Assembly (NCBI GenBank): GCA_913061265.1
Contig: CAJXVS010000002.1
Span: 248,001-312,000 of the forward strand
DNA from: an uncultured Halobacteriovorax sp.
Lineage (GTDB): Bacteria; Bdellovibrionota; Bacteriovoracia; Bacteriovoracales; Bacteriovoracaceae
Length of the DNA: 64,000 nucleotides
Direction of reading: 5' to 3'
Made by a program: the position numbers and the translations under genes. The notes below the pieces were generated by a model. The model searched no databases. It saw only the letters and a program-made list of their open reading frames with translations, and was not told the DNA's origin. The stretch's first letter is position 1. Every line of letters begins with the position of its first letter. Positions 16,237-44,222 of this stretch are shown here, one piece after another.

Positions 16237-16495
16237 GTGGTCTAATGGCCTTCTCACTTTCAAAGTAATTTAAGCTAGTTATATTCGGATTTTTTCAGTA
16301 ACAGTTCATATTTCTTATATTAAGGGGCTTCTTTTGGCCTGAGCTAGTGCCAATTTGAAATTTTAATGAACAATTTACAAACTATTAACAAGTTAGAGCG
16401 GCACAGATATTGTAACTATAAATAGTGGAAGCTTGCGGCAAATAACATGTATTTAGCGGGTTAGCTTAGCGAGCAACAAGTTTAACGGAGGAATA

Positions 16496-17422
16496 GTGAA
16501 GAAACTCACGCTTTTAACTTTGATTCTTTTATCAGGACAAGCCTTCTCCGAAGGTTTTGGTATTCACCAAGTTAAGGAAGGAGAAACCATCTCCTCGATC
16601 TTACATAAGCTTGGGCTGTCTCCACTTTATGGAAAAGAGGGATGGACGACAAAGATATTAGAAATTAACCGTGTCACTTTGAAAAAGTCTAAAAAGCTTG
16701 AACCGGGCGATATGCTTGTGATTCCATCGCTAAAAAAAGAAGTCGCAATGACGGACGACACTATCTCGGTTAAACGCTCTGGTATTTTAAAATCTGGCGT
16801 CTTGAGCCGAAGTAGTTCCAATAAATATGACTTTCTTATTTATACTGATATTGGAAAAAAGAACTATAAAGTGGCTGAACTCGAAGGCGTCTCTAATAAT
16901 TACAATTATGGGATCGGCTTTGAGATCATTGGTCTTAAAAAATATTCTCTTCTTAATAACGAATATACTTTAAATTATGGTGCTTACGTTAATACTCAAA
17001 GGTCAGTTAGCTTAGGGAATACTGCAAGTACTTATGCGCAGTTCTCTCCAGAGGTAAACCTTTACAGTAGTGCTCTTTTTAACGCCTCTAGTTTTTCTTT
17101 TGGTCCAACCTTAGGAGTTACTGAAGAATCCGCTGTTGATAGTGATGGAACGACTCCCTTTGTTCGCCGTGATCGAAAAGTAAATATGGGACTCACTCTT
17201 AAGTATCAAGGAATTGAGAACTTACTTATAGGCATGGGTTCTTATTATTCCGTTTATAGCAAGAACCTTAATAATTTAGAGAAAAATAGTATTCTAACTT
17301 CGTATATGTCTTCTGATCTTAATCTGATAAATGACTTTAAGGTTGGCGTTTTTGGGGAAATCGAAGCTATCGATCGCCAAGATACAGCTTACGGCCTAAG
17401 ACTAACAAAGCTTTTTAAGTAA
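16496..17422 (+). CDS. LysM-domain protein with beta-barrel-like C-terminus
   Basis: The protein has 308 residues. It starts at GTG 16496 after a good GGAGG and has a signal peptide (MKKLTLLTLILLSGQAFS). A LysM domain lies at about 22-76 (HQVKEGETISSILHKLGL to LEPGDMLVIPSL), so it binds peptidoglycan. The remaining 210 residues alternate short polar/aromatic strands and look like an outer-membrane barrel. A LysM on the periplasmic side would tie the barrel to the cell wall. The next gene, a lipoprotein, begins 10 bp later, so they probably form one operon and possibly one complex. Confidence 0.75.
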   Translation: MKKLTLLTLILLSGQAFSEGFGIHQVKEGETISSILHKLGLSPLYGKEGWTTKILEINRVTLKKSKKLEPGDMLVIPSLKKEVAMTDDTISVKRSGILKSGVLSRSSSNKYDFLIYTDIGKKNYKVAELEGVSNNYNYGIGFEIIGLKKYSLLNNEYTLNYGAYVNTQRSVSLGNTASTYAQFSPEVNLYSSALFNASSFSFGPTLGVTEESAVDSDGTTPFVRRDRKVNMGLTLKYQGIENLLIGMGSYYSVYSKNLNNLEKNSILTSYMSSDLNLINDFKVGVFGEIEAIDRQDTAYGLRLTKLFK

Positions 17423-17432
17423 AGGATTAGCT

Positions 17433-18428
17433 ATGACTTCAAAACAAATTATTACTCGATCAATGCTTTGTTTTTCTTTTCTTTTTCTTGTTTCTTGTGA
17501 AGATAAGATAATTCAAGGCGTAGCTGATGGCTCAGTAATTGGACAAGGGAATGTAGAGAGTTGCTCTGCTGGAACTCTCTTTGGCGGCGTTGATGGTGTT
17601 TCGAACATAAAAGATAGCTCTGTCGTTGTAAACTGGCAGGAAGTTCCAGGAAGCCTTGGTTACTCCGTTTTTCAAAAAACAGCTACTGATCCGTTGAAGC
17701 TGGTTAAAACTATTAGCTCCGGAAATTCTTCATATAAGGTTAGTAATCTAACTCCACTTTCTGAATATAGTTTTCTGGTTAAAAGTATTGATCAAGAAGG
17801 TCTTAATGATTGTAACAAGAAGATCAGTACGGTAACGACGCTTAATAAAGAAACATTTGAGTCATGCTTAGATATTCAAACATTTTATGGCAATACCGAA
17901 CCTTCAGGGTCCTATGAGATTGACGTTGATCTAGACGGGCCAAAAGCTCCTTTTGATGTTTATTGCGAAATGGACTTTAATGGCGGTGGCTGGACTCGTC
18001 TCTTTGTTCATAAAACGGCCGGTGGACTTTTTGCTTCAAAAAATGATGCTAAAGAAAAAAACACAAATGATATTAATGCTGATCTATATTCACAACTCAC
18101 ACATTTAAGTGACTTTAAAAGAGATAGTAAATTTGAATTCTGGCTTCATTATGATGAGTTAGATGGAAACGATGGTGGTAATAGATGGACTCAGACCTCT
18201 AATCCCATTTCAGAGAGTATTGCTGGATACACAGCGATCAATGCAGATCATACATCCAGGTTTTGGGGTGGACTCGAACCTGATACTGGTAATAATACTT
18301 TAATAGATGGTTCTGTCGGTCATAGTAACTGGTTTTATGCTATTGGATCGATTCGCTATTGGCCTGGTTCAGGGACGATCCCTGGACCTAATCCAGGGGT
18401 CAAAGAAGTGATACTTTATATTCGTTAA
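17433..18428 (+). CDS. Lipoprotein with fibronectin-III and fibrinogen-like domains
   Basis: This 331-residue protein has a lipobox LVSC (Cys22). A fibronectin type III-like module follows at about 45-135 (VVNWQEVPGSLGYSVFQK, then LTPLSEYSFLVKSID). The C-terminal fibrinogen-like domain starts SCLDIQTFYG, shows the diagnostic PFDVYCEMDFNGGGWTRLF near 167-185, and ends with SIRYW and a strand. Fibrinogen-like domains bind glycans or acetylated groups, and in bacteria occur on surface adhesins. AAAGGA precedes the ATG. It is co-transcribed with the LysM protein, so a surface recognition role is a fair inference. Confidence 0.82.
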   Translation: MTSKQIITRSMLCFSFLFLVSCEDKIIQGVADGSVIGQGNVESCSAGTLFGGVDGVSNIKDSSVVVNWQEVPGSLGYSVFQKTATDPLKLVKTISSGNSSYKVSNLTPLSEYSFLVKSIDQEGLNDCNKKISTVTTLNKETFESCLDIQTFYGNTEPSGSYEIDVDLDGPKAPFDVYCEMDFNGGGWTRLFVHKTAGGLFASKNDAKEKNTNDINADLYSQLTHLSDFKRDSKFEFWLHYDELDGNDGGNRWTQTSNPISESIAGYTAINADHTSRFWGGLEPDTGNNTLIDGSVGHSNWFYAIGSIRYWPGSGTIPGPNPGVKEVILYIR

Positions 18429-18450: not shown

Positions 18451-18469
18451 GAGGTGGCATCGCCACCTC
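18451..18469 (+). terminator. Hairpin after the fibrinogen-like lipoprotein gene
   Basis: GAGGTGGC (18451-18458), loop ATC, GCCACCTC (18462-18469): a perfect 8-bp stem 22 bp after the stop. The T-run is poor, so strength is uncertain. It also serves the end of the convergent gene at 18498. Confidence 0.6.
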
Positions 18470-40955: not shown

Positions 40956-43900
40956 ATGAGAAAGACTGCCCTTTTAATATTCATGTCCTTTATAGTCACT
41001 CCAAAGCTTTGGGCCTTTCCCTCTGTCTTTTCCTATATGGATAAATCAATCAATAAAAAAGTAACTGTAAGATGTTCTGAAAAAGTCAGTTCAGTCTTAG
41101 ACCTGTCAGGGATAAGAGACATTGCTGATAATTTAAATTGCGAGAATATGTCAGCAGAAGATTATTGCGACTGTATTGAAACTAAGCATATGGGAATTCA
41201 ATCACGTAATCAGATCATTGTTCTTGAGACGGAACTAGGCTTTTTTGGAAGTGGTGAGGACTCTATTCCAGCTGGTTATTTAAAGGAACTCTCGGAGTAT
41301 CAAAGACTTCAAAAAATGTATGGGGATGGTGTTTCTTCAAACTGTTTTTCAAGGAGTTTTGAGAATGCTCAGACTACTTTGGAAAAAGAGTCTAGCCTCT
41401 TTAGTAGAAACCTAAATCCTAAGTATGAAACTAATAAAGTTCCTGCCTATGTCAATAATGAGTATATCAACAAAGCACTAAACCTCTCAAATCTTGTCGA
41501 ATATTCGAATAGTCCTGAGGAAATAAAGAATGCTGAGTCTGATGCTCGTCTAATGGTTGAAGTCGCGAAGATTGTACAAGAAAATAAGATGACGACAGAC
41601 TATAGTAAAAAAGACTTTGGAACTGGATTTTCTGATGAATATACTTCAAGCTTTTTACTTTCCGGTTTCTTTAAGGAGAGTAAAGGCGAAGAATATAATA
41701 ATTCACCACTCTATAAGACCTTACAAAAAGTATTCTTCCAAACTAATTTTGCTTTCGCTACAACCGAAAGTAGTAATGCCATCGATAATCTCATTGATGC
41801 TGCCTCACGAATAAACTTAGCGGATGCTAAAAAGTCAGATGGAAGTATCGATCATAAAATCATAACCTCACAAATGAGATCGTATGACTTTTCTTTTCCA
41901 ATGGGGGAGATGTTAAGGTCACTCTGTCATGATACCAGTAGTGACTTGATTCGTTCGAGCTATTCTTCTGATAGTAAAGGCTTCATGAGCCCTGATAAAA
42001 AACAGCACTATAAAGGAATAGGGAAGGATCTCCTTAGGGAGTACTCACCGATAGATTCAAACACAGATGAAGGCAAAAAGAAGTTCCGTGAACTTGGTCT
42101 TCTTCAAGAGAAAGTCGTTGGGAAAATGGCTGAACAGTTCAAATACCCTTTACATAAAGTTCTTTCTGAAGATGATCAATCTAAAATGGACGAGTTTATT
42201 CGTAAGAAGAAAGACTTAATGGGGAAAATGTGGTGTGGCCTTCAAAAATCTAAAGCTAATGAAGAAATTATCGAAGAATTAGTGTCATCGGATCCAAGTC
42301 TTGGTTATAAACTTTTTGAAAATCAGTTGAGATTAGAAAAACTTGAAAAAGAGAAACTGACAACCATAACAGATTTAGTAAGAGTAAGGCAGATCCAAAA
42401 TGATGCTCATTCATCACTATCATTTTTCAAAAGAGAAGTTGAAAGAGACGAAGCTGAAATAACGAAACTTAAGAAAAATATTTTAGAACTAGAGAAGTTA
42501 ATTCCTGTCGATGAAGAAGAAATTAAAAAATTATCTAAAAAAATTAAAATGAGAGAGTCGGAATGGGTAAAGAATAAAATGAACGTTACTCGCATTGATA
42601 AAGTTTTTAAAGATGCAACTAATAGAAGAAATAATCTTGAAGAGCGAGCAAATGAAAAAGAAGATGAAATCGACGTCCTTAAATTATCAAATGCAGCTGT
42701 TATTGGCGGAGTAGAGCCTGGTATTACTGATGTGAACTCTTTAATCCAGGCGACTGAACAAGTTCAATTTATAGACTCAGTAGATTCAAATGGAGATAGA
42801 ACGGTTACTGTAGAGCCAATAGATATAGGAAGTCAGTTAACTGTCTTTATGGAAGCGGATACTAAAGAGATTTCACTTGTAACTAAAGAGGATGCCTCTA
42901 TTCAATTATCTGAGATGACGAAAAGCACAATCAATAACATCGACAATATTACTTCGAATGGATTTAAAGGGGATGTCCCTGAAAAGATTTTAAACGAAGC
43001 TGCACGAACTATTGAAGGGATGATAGACGACTCATTTACGTTGTTGAAAATATCTGGAGCTGATGAGGAAGTACTAAAGAAATCTCTAGAGAGTACAAAA
43101 AAAATAAAGAGTGCTTTAGAACCTAGGGTTGGAGATCTTAAATTTCAAGAGTTGGGTGAGTATAAAAAACTGACTAGTACTAATGAAGTCCTAGAGAAAT
43201 TCGTTGAAAAGAAAAATGAAGTCGCTAGAGAGTTAAAGAATAATAATTTGCAGGCAGGTAAGGTGTTAAGCAAAGGTCCTATTACCTCACCAGCTAAAGT
43301 GACTAAAGACATACGTAAACCTTCTGCGAAAACTGTAACGGCGCCTCAAAATGATCCGATCGACCGTTTAACAAAGGTTCTAGAACAGAATATAAATCCA
43401 CAATCAGATAAAGAAAGTGACTTCGAAGCATACAAGGCTCAGAAGTCCTCAGCCGCTAATAAACAAAAAGCTAAAAAGAAGAAAGTCGCTTCTAATAAAA
43501 AGAACGATAAAGTAAAACAAGAAATTGCGAAGCTATCTTCAGAGCTAAAAACATTAAAAGAAGAAGAAAAGGTTTTATCAGTATCACGCAAGAGGATTCT
43601 TAAGGACCAAGAGAAATTAGCGCCACTTAAAAAGAAAGAAAAAAATCTTGCTGAAACGGATTCAAATTCTTTAAGACCGTCACCAAAAGAAAAGAGAGCT
43701 GGCCAATCGAAAAGGGAGCGTAAGAATCTTAATAGTGCCCTTGATTCATTTCGCTCTTTAGGTGCGGCAAAGGCAATCACAGGTCCAGCAAGCTCTGTAG
43801 CTTCGATAATCGATCGTCAGGTTGAAGGTGGAGTCATAGTAAACGGAGAGTATATTCCAAATGTCCTTTTATATAGAGGAGAGAGAAGAAACTCATACGA

Positions 43901-44222
43901 TGATACGAAGAAGAAAGAGAATGGTTTAAAGGTCTCTGGATTCAAGGGGAGCACCTTTGAAACAGTAGAGTTAATAAATAACAAAGATCAGAAAAGTGAT
44001 CTGATTCCCATTATTGCTTTAGATAACTTTGATTCCTTAAGTGAAGGCGATAAAGAGCTCTTTATTCAAAAGCAGTTTATTAAGTATAAATCTATGAAGG
44101 TTGTTATTAAGATGAATAATGGCCGCAAGGTTCTTTTTAAATCAAAGGTTTCACTATCGGCAAGACGCCAGGTTTCTAAGCTTAATGACATCTTGGATCA
44201 ATATACGACGAAAATTGATTAA
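40956..44222 (+). CDS. Large secreted coiled-coil protein, unknown function
   Basis: This 1088-residue protein has a signal peptide (MRKTALLIFMSFIVTPKLWA). A Cys-containing N-terminal domain (CSEKVSSVLDLSGIRDIADN, CENMSAEDYCDC) comes first, then a long mostly helical region. A Lys/Glu-rich coiled coil lies at about 453-580, and a second Lys-rich stretch at about 826-945. The C-terminal module (about 1015-1065) has the QF...VVIKM...GRKVLFKSK pattern seen in the partial protein at the left edge. It is likely periplasmic or secreted. No family recognised. It stands alone. Confidence 0.75.
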   Translation: MRKTALLIFMSFIVTPKLWAFPSVFSYMDKSINKKVTVRCSEKVSSVLDLSGIRDIADNLNCENMSAEDYCDCIETKHMGIQSRNQIIVLETELGFFGSGEDSIPAGYLKELSEYQRLQKMYGDGVSSNCFSRSFENAQTTLEKESSLFSRNLNPKYETNKVPAYVNNEYINKALNLSNLVEYSNSPEEIKNAESDARLMVEVAKIVQENKMTTDYSKKDFGTGFSDEYTSSFLLSGFFKESKGEEYNNSPLYKTLQKVFFQTNFAFATTESSNAIDNLIDAASRINLADAKKSDGSIDHKIITSQMRSYDFSFPMGEMLRSLCHDTSSDLIRSSYSSDSKGFMSPDKKQHYKGIGKDLLREYSPIDSNTDEGKKKFRELGLLQEKVVGKMAEQFKYPLHKVLSEDDQSKMDEFIRKKKDLMGKMWCGLQKSKANEEIIEELVSSDPSLGYKLFENQLRLEKLEKEKLTTITDLVRVRQIQNDAHSSLSFFKREVERDEAEITKLKKNILELEKLIPVDEEEIKKLSKKIKMRESEWVKNKMNVTRIDKVFKDATNRRNNLEERANEKEDEIDVLKLSNAAVIGGVEPGITDVNSLIQATEQVQFIDSVDSNGDRTVTVEPIDIGSQLTVFMEADTKEISLVTKEDASIQLSEMTKSTINNIDNITSNGFKGDVPEKILNEAARTIEGMIDDSFTLLKISGADEEVLKKSLESTKKIKSALEPRVGDLKFQELGEYKKLTSTNEVLEKFVEKKNEVARELKNNNLQAGKVLSKGPITSPAKVTKDIRKPSAKTVTAPQNDPIDRLTKVLEQNINPQSDKESDFEAYKAQKSSAANKQKAKKKKVASNKKNDKVKQEIAKLSSELKTLKEEEKVLSVSRKRILKDQEKLAPLKKKEKNLAETDSNSLRPSPKEKRAGQSKRERKNLNSALDSFRSLGAAKAITGPASSVASIIDRQVEGGVIVNGEYIPNVLLYRGERRNSYDDTKKKENGLKVSGFKGSTFETVELINNKDQKSDLIPIIALDNFDSLSEGDKELFIQKQFIKYKSMKVVIKMNNGRKVLFKSKVSLSARRQVSKLNDILDQYTTKID

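What the first reader, a model, noticed from the sequence alone, without database searches (positions are those of the whole stretch)
16496..18428. Wall-bound barrel with a fibrinogen-like lipoprotein partner
A LysM protein with a barrel-like rear and a lipoprotein with FN3 and fibrinogen-like domains (CEMDFNGGGWT) are co-transcribed 10 bp apart. Fibrinogen-like domains bind glycans or acetyl groups. A surface-recognition pair tied to peptidoglycan is plausible, possibly in prey contact.
Basis: partly seen in the sequence, partly recalled or inferred. Interest (0 to 1): 0.5.

Follow-up and report, generated by a model that had tools for sequence, protein, structure and literature searches.

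The report
Paired wall-anchor and surface-adhesin genes
Two neighbouring genes appear to encode an outer-membrane barrel that grips the cell wall and a lipid-anchored protein with a binding tip, and similar pairs with exchanged tips occur across this bacterial phylum, which suggests a little-described way of mounting adhesins on the cell.

Summary
ORF A (16496-17422) has a signal-peptide-like start, a LysM domain and a predicted 10-strand outer-membrane barrel. ORF B (17433-18428, 10 bp on) is a lipoprotein with one FN3 domain and a C-terminal fibrinogen-like domain (GGGWT family; the modelled domain superposes on fibrinogen-like structures).

The larger finding lies outside the coordinates. 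LysM-barrel proteins recur in the phylum; when a co-directional gene follows within 60 bp it encodes a lipoprotein in 35 of 37 barrel-confirmed cases, against 10 of 122 control pairs from the same loci. The partner's outer part changes: fibrinogen-like here and in one other genome, LamG in seven nearest relatives, elsewhere Big_1/Invasin_D3 repeats, cadherin-like domains, an RCC1 propeller or S74 fibre ends.

LysM + barrel + Ig-repeat + lectin is the layout of intimin/YeeJ-type inverse autotransporters, here split over two genes with the passenger lipid-anchored. Best reading: the LysM-barrel is a dedicated outer-membrane and peptidoglycan mount for a surface lipoprotein adhesin. Whether it also carries the adhesin across the membrane is open. 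Ligand and prey contact are untested. It is not a general anchor for Bdellovibrio MAT fibres.

The parts
16487..16491 (+). ribosome-binding-site-like GGAGG before the GTG start of ORF A
   Evidence: read directly from the sequence
16496..17422 (+). ORF A: LysM outer-membrane barrel protein, 308 aa, N-terminal signal-peptide-like segment
16565..16726 (+). LysM domain of ORF A (residues 24-77), with the PLYGKEG insert seen in similar form in most rows of A1
   Evidence: Pfam LysM 1.7e-5; alignment A1
16739..16813 (+). low-confidence linker between LysM and barrel (residues 82-106)
   Evidence: pLDDT below 50
16817..17419 (+). predicted 10-strand outer-membrane barrel (residues 108-308)
   Evidence: AlphaFold2; VIA-align Z 16-19 to Pla/OmpT/OpcA
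17423..17432 (+). 10-bp gap between the two ORFs; AAGGA before B starts at the last base of A's stop
17433..18428 (+). ORF B: lipoprotein, 331 aa, with FN3 and fibrinogen-like domains
17487..17498 (+). lipobox LVSC (lipid-bearing Cys22) of ORF B
   Evidence: sequence; script rule
17598..17816 (+). fibronectin type III domain (residues 56-128)
   Evidence: Pfam fn3 8e-7; VIA-align Z 12-13 to FN3 domains
17850..18425 (+). fibrinogen-like C-terminal domain (residues 140-331)
   Evidence: NCBIfam GGGWT_bact 2.9e-14; Z 13.2 to Angptl3 and 12.3 to tenascin-R fibrinogen-like domains over 169 and 179 residues
18451..18469 (+). terminator-like stem-loop after ORF B (8 pairs, weak T tail)
   Evidence: two found in the region, 2.0 expected from shuffles

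Best explanation
The two genes make one surface device. ORF A sits in the outer membrane as a 10-strand barrel and holds the peptidoglycan through its periplasmic LysM domain. ORF B is lipidated, reaches the cell surface, docks on or next to the barrel, and presents its fibrinogen-like domain on an FN3 spacer as a binding tip. ORF A is thus a dedicated, wall-tethered mount that stops a lipid-anchored adhesin from being pulled out. Related bacteria keep the mount and change the tip. Shown by computation: domains, folds (models), tight pairing, tip exchange. Inferred: surface location, physical contact between A and B, peptidoglycan binding, adhesion.
For: Pairing: 57 dereplicated LysM-barrel proteins match a barrel-only profile; where a co-directional gene follows within 60 bp it is a lipoprotein in 35 of 37, against 10 of 122 control pairs (upstream gene of 200 aa or more) from the same loci and 0 of 17 in the window (150 aa or more); with both neighbours in view, at least one is a lipoprotein in 41 of 50 against 75 of 343. 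Exported-looking non-lipoprotein controls: 0 of 28. Of 41 downstream co-directional lipoproteins next to the 73 representatives, 22 overlap the barrel gene and 34 lie within 12 bp. Barrel homology apart from LysM: 36 of 52 non-seed representatives. Tip exchange: in seven nearest relatives (G026-G029, G123-G125) the LysM-barrel is followed at 7-11 bp by a lipoprotein that matches ORF B at its start and FN3 but ends in Laminin_G_3 in 7 of 7. Of 55 neighbour lipoproteins scanned, 42 have an adhesin-, fibre- or Ig-like family over the curated cut-off: Laminin_G_3 in 23, Big_1 or Invasin_D3 in 11, Peptidase_S74 in 2, besides TIG, cadherin-like, RCC1, He_PIG, fn3. Fold: for A; for B. Between the two full-length copies the fibrinogen-like domain is better kept (150 of 193 residues) than FN3 (51 of 93). 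YeeJ shows that a LysM beside a barrel binds peptidoglycan and supports the surface level of an adhesin (PMC5595812, passages).
Against: No experiment. Of 82 members, 20 have no adjacent lipoprotein by my rule, including both same-genus relatives (L104, L105); some of the 20 are contig ends or lipoboxes my rule missed (for example L173). Of 55 neighbours scanned 13 have no such domain, and two are plainly unrelated: a cytochrome-like protein (L100) and a carbamoyltransferase (L146); neither is in the tight set. 16 of the 73 representatives do not match the barrel-only profile. The barrel is only predicted, once, from a 24-row alignment. The pair was not folded together, so contact is untested. 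The window's own partner is short and has no Big repeats. Neighbouring genes can be linked by shared regulation only.
Confidence: 0.55

Rival explanations
1. ORF A is mainly a translocator: like Slam/TXISS barrels it moves its neighbour lipoprotein across the outer membrane, and LysM only positions it.
For: [quoted passage not shown] PMC9090332, abstract start in listing). The tight barrel-lipoprotein pairing here is alike.
Against: Ten predicted strands against 14 mentioned for DUF560 proteins; LysM in place of TPR; Pfam returned only LysM for ORF A. The scanned partners show no one shared C-terminal domain.
Confidence: 0.2
2. Both proteins face the periplasm: a LysM barrel and a glycan-binding lipoprotein that tie outer membrane and wall together; no adhesion.
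For: LysM next to a barrel is a periplasmic, wall-directed module in YeeJ; lipoproteins face the periplasm by default in model Gram-negatives (general knowledge).
Against: Some related partners have 1,000 to over 1,700 aa with many Ig repeats, or end in S74 fibre tips, which is hard to fit into a periplasm and typical of surface fibres (inference).
Confidence: 0.12
3. No physical link: a small porin and a lipoprotein that happen to be co-regulated.
For: 20 of 82 barrels have no lipoprotein neighbour by my rule; both same-genus copies stand alone.
Against: 35 of 37 against 10 of 122, in several families of the phylum (f1, f3, f10, f26), with varying tips.
Confidence: 0.1

Closest known systems
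Inverse autotransporters (type Ve: intimin, invasin, YeeJ)
   Same: Signal peptide, periplasmic LysM, outer-membrane barrel; in several relatives the passenger has Big_1/Invasin_D3 repeats and a lectin-like (LamG) part; YeeJ has Invasin_D3, Big_1 and a C-type lectin end (PMC5595812 passages).
   Different: Barrel and passenger are two genes; the passenger is a lipoprotein; 10 predicted strands rather than 12 (12 recalled); only LysM is returned by Pfam for ORF A.
Slam / TXISS (DUF560) barrels with surface lipoproteins
   Same: Outer-membrane barrel encoded beside a lipoprotein.
   Different: LysM instead of TPR, 10 predicted strands instead of 14, and ORF B ends in a fibrinogen-like domain, not in the eight-strand barrel reported for structurally known cargo (PMC8406197 passages).
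Bdellovibrio MAT fibres (mosaic adhesive trimers)
   Same: Constant base with exchangeable tips; S74 ends occur in two LysM-barrel partners (L102, L121), and two LysM-barrel gene rows contain a MAT-type N-terminal domain (L161, L177).
   Different: ORF B has no S74 domain and has a lipobox; MAT domains occur in 24 of 24 genomes of the Bdellovibrio-like genus, LysM-barrel profile matches in only 15 of 24, so the barrel is not the general MAT anchor.
Fibrinogen-like (FReD) proteins: tenascin, angiopoietin-like, FIBCD1, ficolins, intelectins
   Same: GGGWT motif, profile match (tenascin 2e-8) and whole-domain fold.
   Different: Sequence similarity stops after about the first 100 of 180 positions; the rest is of a bacterial kind (WGGLE...DGSV.HSNW).
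OpcA / omptin 10-strand barrels
   Same: Best structural matches of the barrel (Z 16-19).
   Different: 12-18% identity in those rows; Pfam returned no omptin family for ORF A; a LysM domain is added in front.

Membership tests
Inverse autotransporter (type Ve) | N-terminal periplasmic LysM before the barrel | tested here: met
   Pfam LysM at 24-77; order in the model
Inverse autotransporter (type Ve) | 12-strand barrel of the intimin/invasin family | tested here: not met
   10 strands predicted; Pfam returned only LysM at E up to 10. The number 12 is recalled.
Inverse autotransporter (type Ve) | passenger C-terminal to the barrel in one polypeptide | tested here: not met
   ORF A ends with the last strand; passenger is in the next gene. 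Two apparent fusions were artefacts of masked sequence.
Inverse autotransporter (type Ve) | passenger of Big/Invasin repeats | tested here: not met
   not in ORF B; present in 11 of 55 neighbour lipoproteins of relatives
Slam/TXISS | DUF560 14-strand barrel with TPR domain | tested here: not met
   features from PMC8406197 passages
Slam/TXISS | encoded beside a lipoprotein | tested here: met
   adjacent lipoprotein gene; surface location itself not testable
Slam/TXISS | needed for surface display of the lipoprotein | not testable with these tools
   needs a deletion strain
Fibrinogen-like domain proteins | GGGWT/Fibrinogen_C sequence signature | tested here: met
Fibrinogen-like domain proteins | whole-domain fold | tested here: met
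   Z 13.2 over 169 residues (Angptl3), 12.3 over 179 (tenascin-R) on a model of mean pLDDT 71.3
Fibrinogen-like domain proteins | calcium site and acetyl-binding pocket of ficolin/FIBCD1/tachylectin | not tested
   residues not compared; sequence similarity does not reach that half
MAT fibres | S74 chaperone end (S74 subfamily) | tested here: not met
   no Peptidase_S74 in ORF B
MAT fibres | conserved ~130-aa N-terminal beta-rich domain | tested here: not met
   a home-made profile of MAT-type N-terminal domains matched 10 proteins of the loci held (E <= 1e-5), none in a locus of the window pair
Omptins | 10-strand barrel | tested here: met
   (prediction)
Omptins | catalytic Asp/His residues | not tested
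   no omptin family in the Pfam scan; residues not compared
Bacterial lipoproteins | lipobox with N-terminal hydrophobic segment | tested here: met
   LVSC, Cys22 (one search rule; sequence)

The most novel reading that the evidence does not exclude
A phylum-wide two-gene surface-display system: a LysM 10-strand barrel that both carries a lipoprotein passenger across the outer membrane and holds it to the wall, a split counterpart of inverse autotransporters in which the passenger (LamG, Ig repeats, fibrinogen-like, propeller or fibre) is exchanged freely to suit new targets, prey included.
Probability: 0.25. Interest if true: 0.8.

Novelty: new variant of a known kind. Interest (0 to 1): 0.55.

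Why it matters
How predatory and related bacteria fix large adhesins to their surface is an open point; the MAT-fibre paper says that the surface element bound by the fibres' base awaits identification (PMC10769870, passages). A defined gene pair, with a constant mount and exchangeable tips, gives a testable candidate for one such mount (not the general MAT one), and a natural source of parts for showing lipoproteins on Gram-negative cells. It would also show that the intimin plan, LysM + barrel + passenger, can be split into two genes.

Tried and rejected
General MAT anchor: rejected. In 24 genomes of the Bdellovibrio-like genus, MAT N-terminal domains occur in 24 and LysM-barrel profile matches (E <= 1e-4, some LysM-only or barrel-only) in 15.

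Fusion of barrel and passenger in one gene: two long open frames (in L117 and L168) were artefacts of masked sequence.

Naming the organism: one named-genome scan gave 7 loci, five Clostridia-labelled, one Oscillospiraceae (a short FN3 match), one uncultured proteobacterium; the tool says the window's own genome may be left out. That the phylum is Bdellovibrionota and genus g52 Bdellovibrio is inferred from protein content and the many MAT copies.

Shared N-terminal address after the lipid Cys: NP[LFM] in 14 of 58 neighbour entries and 2 of 45 other lipoproteins (p 0.006). The motif was chosen after looking, some 'others' are true partners, and the window's CEDK lacks it; not used.

Alignment A3 put FN3-only rows on the wrong domain; dropped, A4/A5 used instead. 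Foldseek on ORF B shows FN3 or FN3-like matches in its 50 listed rows; the fibrinogen-like matches come from the second look. Intimin and intelectin structures are not among the rows listed; this excludes nothing.

Rows dropped: L117 and L168 (masked), L174 (my ORF picker did not recover the barrel gene); L156-L158 were left out of the statistics. Pfam was run on 55 neighbour lipoproteins in all: first 35 that I chose, mostly tight downstream ones but with L107 (upstream), L109 (divergent) and L154 (convergent), of which 29 had an adhesin-, fibre- or Ig-like family; then, on rechecking, 20 more, many of them upstream, divergent or convergent, of which 13 had one. Not every one of the 58 neighbour entries was scanned, and some of the 55 are not cluster representatives. 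The lipobox rule is a home-made pattern; it misses some and admits some false ones (glutamate synthase in the window; a carbamoyltransferase in L146, which is among the 41 downstream lipoproteins at a gap of 360). Control pairs come from the same loci, so they are not a random genome sample. Fisher values treat clusters at 50% identity as independent, which is only roughly true.

Papers: searches (listings and abstract starts) showed nothing that describes LysM-barrel/lipoprotein pairs or bacterial GGGWT proteins; word searches in the MAT paper for LysM, barrel, lipoprotein, fibrinogen, operon and neighbour found none, and the MIDAS-adhesin paper PMC11003981 (passages) gave nothing on such pairs. 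Most subscription papers and all bioRxiv preprints are not held.

Full report
Observation. Two ORFs on the + strand, 16496-17422 and 17433-18428, are separated by 10 bp. ORF A begins with GTG behind GGAGG, carries a signal-peptide-like start and a LysM domain at residues 24-77 (Pfam 1.7e-5, above its cut-off). ORF B has a lipobox (LVSC, Cys22), an FN3 domain at 56-128 and a fibrinogen-like region; NCBIfam names the bacterial GGGWT family at 144-189 with 2.9e-14. A stem-loop follows at 18451-18469, though such motifs are as frequent in shuffles.

Structures. AlphaFold2 on a 24-row alignment gives ORF A a mean pLDDT of 82.5: LysM, a low-confidence linker at 82-106, then ten long strands over 111-307. 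Among solved structures the barrel resembles 10-strand outer-membrane barrels of the Pla/OmpT and OpcA type, with Z 16-19 over 183-190 residues (OpcA is also Foldseek's first row). For ORF B (mean pLDDT 71.3; residues 1-42 below 50) the FN3 part matches FN3 domains at Z 12-13 and residues 140-331 match the fibrinogen-like domains of Angptl3 (Z 13.2, 169 aligned) and tenascin-R (Z 12.3, 179 aligned). A profile of bacterial GGGWT domains finds tenascin at 2e-8 and FIBCD1 at 2e-7, but only over about its first 100 of 180 positions. The fold is thus fibrinogen-like; the second half is not alike in sequence, so no ligand should be inferred.

The pair in relatives. A full-length ORF B occurs in only one other of 129 genomes of the family at E <= 0.001 (G035, 68% identity), again behind ORF A (65%). 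In seven further genomes (G026-G029, G123-G125) an ORF A relative is followed at 7-11 bp by a lipoprotein that matches ORF B over its start and FN3 domain. Its end is different: Pfam gives Laminin_G_3 over the cut-off in 7 of 7. The mount and spacer are kept, the tip is exchanged. Between the window and G035 the fibrinogen-like domain is kept better (52 of 62 and 98 of 131 residues in its two parts) than FN3 (51 of 93), as expected for a working tip.

How general it is. A profile of LysM-barrel proteins matches 89 of 129 genomes of the family at E <= 1e-4 (this includes LysM-only and barrel-only proteins) and 81 of 368 genomes of the phylum at E <= 1e-15. From 80 fetched loci, five further loci, three short loci and the window I took 82 members, 73 after clustering at 50% identity. 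Barrel homology was checked apart from LysM: 36 of 52 non-seed representatives match a barrel-only profile, and 57 of the 73 are barrel-confirmed in all. Among these 57, when a co-directional gene follows within 60 bp, it encodes a lipoprotein in 35 of 37; the same measure for other genes of 200 aa or more in these loci is 10 of 122, and for genes of 150 aa or more in the window 0 of 17. With both neighbours in view, 41 of 50 have at least one lipoprotein beside them, against 75 of 343. For all 73 the tight figure is 39 of 42 against 10 of 135, and 0 of 28 for exported-looking non-lipoproteins. Of 41 downstream co-directional lipoproteins, 22 overlap the barrel gene and 34 lie within 12 bp. 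Against this, 20 of 82 members have no lipoprotein neighbour by my rule, among them both same-genus relatives of the window; a few of these are contig ends or missed lipoboxes.

What the partners are. Pfam on 55 neighbour lipoproteins found adhesin-, fibre- or Ig-like families over the curated cut-off in 42: Laminin_G_3 in 23, Big_1 or Invasin_D3 in 11, S74 fibre ends in 2 (L102, L121), and TIG, cadherin-like, He_PIG, RCC1 or FN3 in others. The first 35, mostly tight downstream neighbours, gave 29; the 20 added on rechecking, many in other orientations, gave 13. Of the 13 without such a domain two are unrelated (a cytochrome-like protein, a carbamoyltransferase). In the Bdellovibrio-like family (f3) six scanned partners (L159, L160, L162, L163, L165, L167) have 1,361 to 1,734 aa (two of them cut at the locus end) with Invasin_D3, FN3 and LamG, and a seventh (L166) has 790 aa with Invasin_D3 and LamG. 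LysM, barrel, Ig repeats and a lectin-like end is the layout of YeeJ and other inverse autotransporters (PMC5595812, passages), but there in one polypeptide.

Mechanism. The best-supported reading is a wall-tethered mount: the barrel fixed by LysM to peptidoglycan holds a lipid-anchored adhesin at the surface. Steps shown by computation are domains, modelled folds, pairing and tip exchange; steps inferred are surface location, direct contact, peptidoglycan binding and adhesion. In YeeJ, removal of LysM abolishes peptidoglycan binding and lowers the surface level, which is a precedent and not a test. A translocator in the manner of Slam/TXISS (PMC8406197, passages) is the main rival: similar gene arrangement, but no DUF560 match in the Pfam scan, fewer predicted strands, and no one domain shared by the partners.

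Relation to MAT fibres. The MAT paper states that the surface element bound by the fibre base is unidentified (PMC10769870, passages). Two loci have LysM-barrel, a ~100-aa lipoprotein and a MAT-type protein in a row on one strand (L161, L177), and in L176 a MAT-type gene diverges from the barrel gene. But MAT domains occur in 24 of 24 genomes of that genus and LysM-barrel matches in 15 of 24, so the barrel can be a dedicated mount for some fibres, not the general one. Separately, in eight loci of the window's family, proteins with two to five GGGWT motifs lie directly after long fibre-like genes. The MAT-type start is found in five of these eight (L179, L180, L185, L187, L188), and an S74 end was confirmed in the one scanned (L179). 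The fibrinogen-like domain of ORF B is 37-46% identical to domains of this group, which ties it loosely to predator surface fibres; three Clostridia-labelled sequences are as close, 43-48% over a shorter stretch.

Novelty. I know of no description of these pairs, and the paper searches named under Tried and rejected showed none. By plan it is a variant of known kinds (split inverse autotransporter; barrel-lipoprotein pair), with a mount whose barrel has no Pfam or NCBIfam family over cut-off. Prey contact is possible, not shown.

Noticed in passing
L179-L182, L185-L188 (G085, G002 twice, G030, G004, G045, G003, G047): Secreted-looking proteins of 936-1,211 aa with two to five GGGWT (fibrinogen-like) motifs lie directly after long fibre-like genes (MAT-type start in L179, L180, L185, L187, L188; S74 end in L179), in L179 two copies in tandem; possibly tips or caps of the fibres.
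   Followed up: partly
L204:7942-9819 (G000:C1, own genome): A 625-aa protein with a FecR domain and a C-terminal barrel that matches the LysM-barrel profile; open frames of about 590-660 aa with a barrel-only match occur in many genomes of the family, their front part not examined.
   Followed up: partly
L196-L198: Three Clostridia-labelled sequences align to the second part of the bacterial fibrinogen-like domain without its GGGWT part, so the domain may have two separable parts.
   Followed up: no
L203:9845-12589 (G000:C2 end, own genome): The window's genome has one Peptidase_S74 match, in a repetitive fibre-like protein cut by the contig end.
   Followed up: no
window 40956-44222: A 1,088-aa ORF with no Pfam match at E <= 0.001.
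   Followed up: no
L138:5762-10999 (G104): A LysM-barrel partner of more than 1,700 aa (cut at the locus end) with 15 He_PIG stretches and a formylglycine-enzyme-like domain, a fold used elsewhere for variable binding tips (the last remark is recalled).
   Followed up: no
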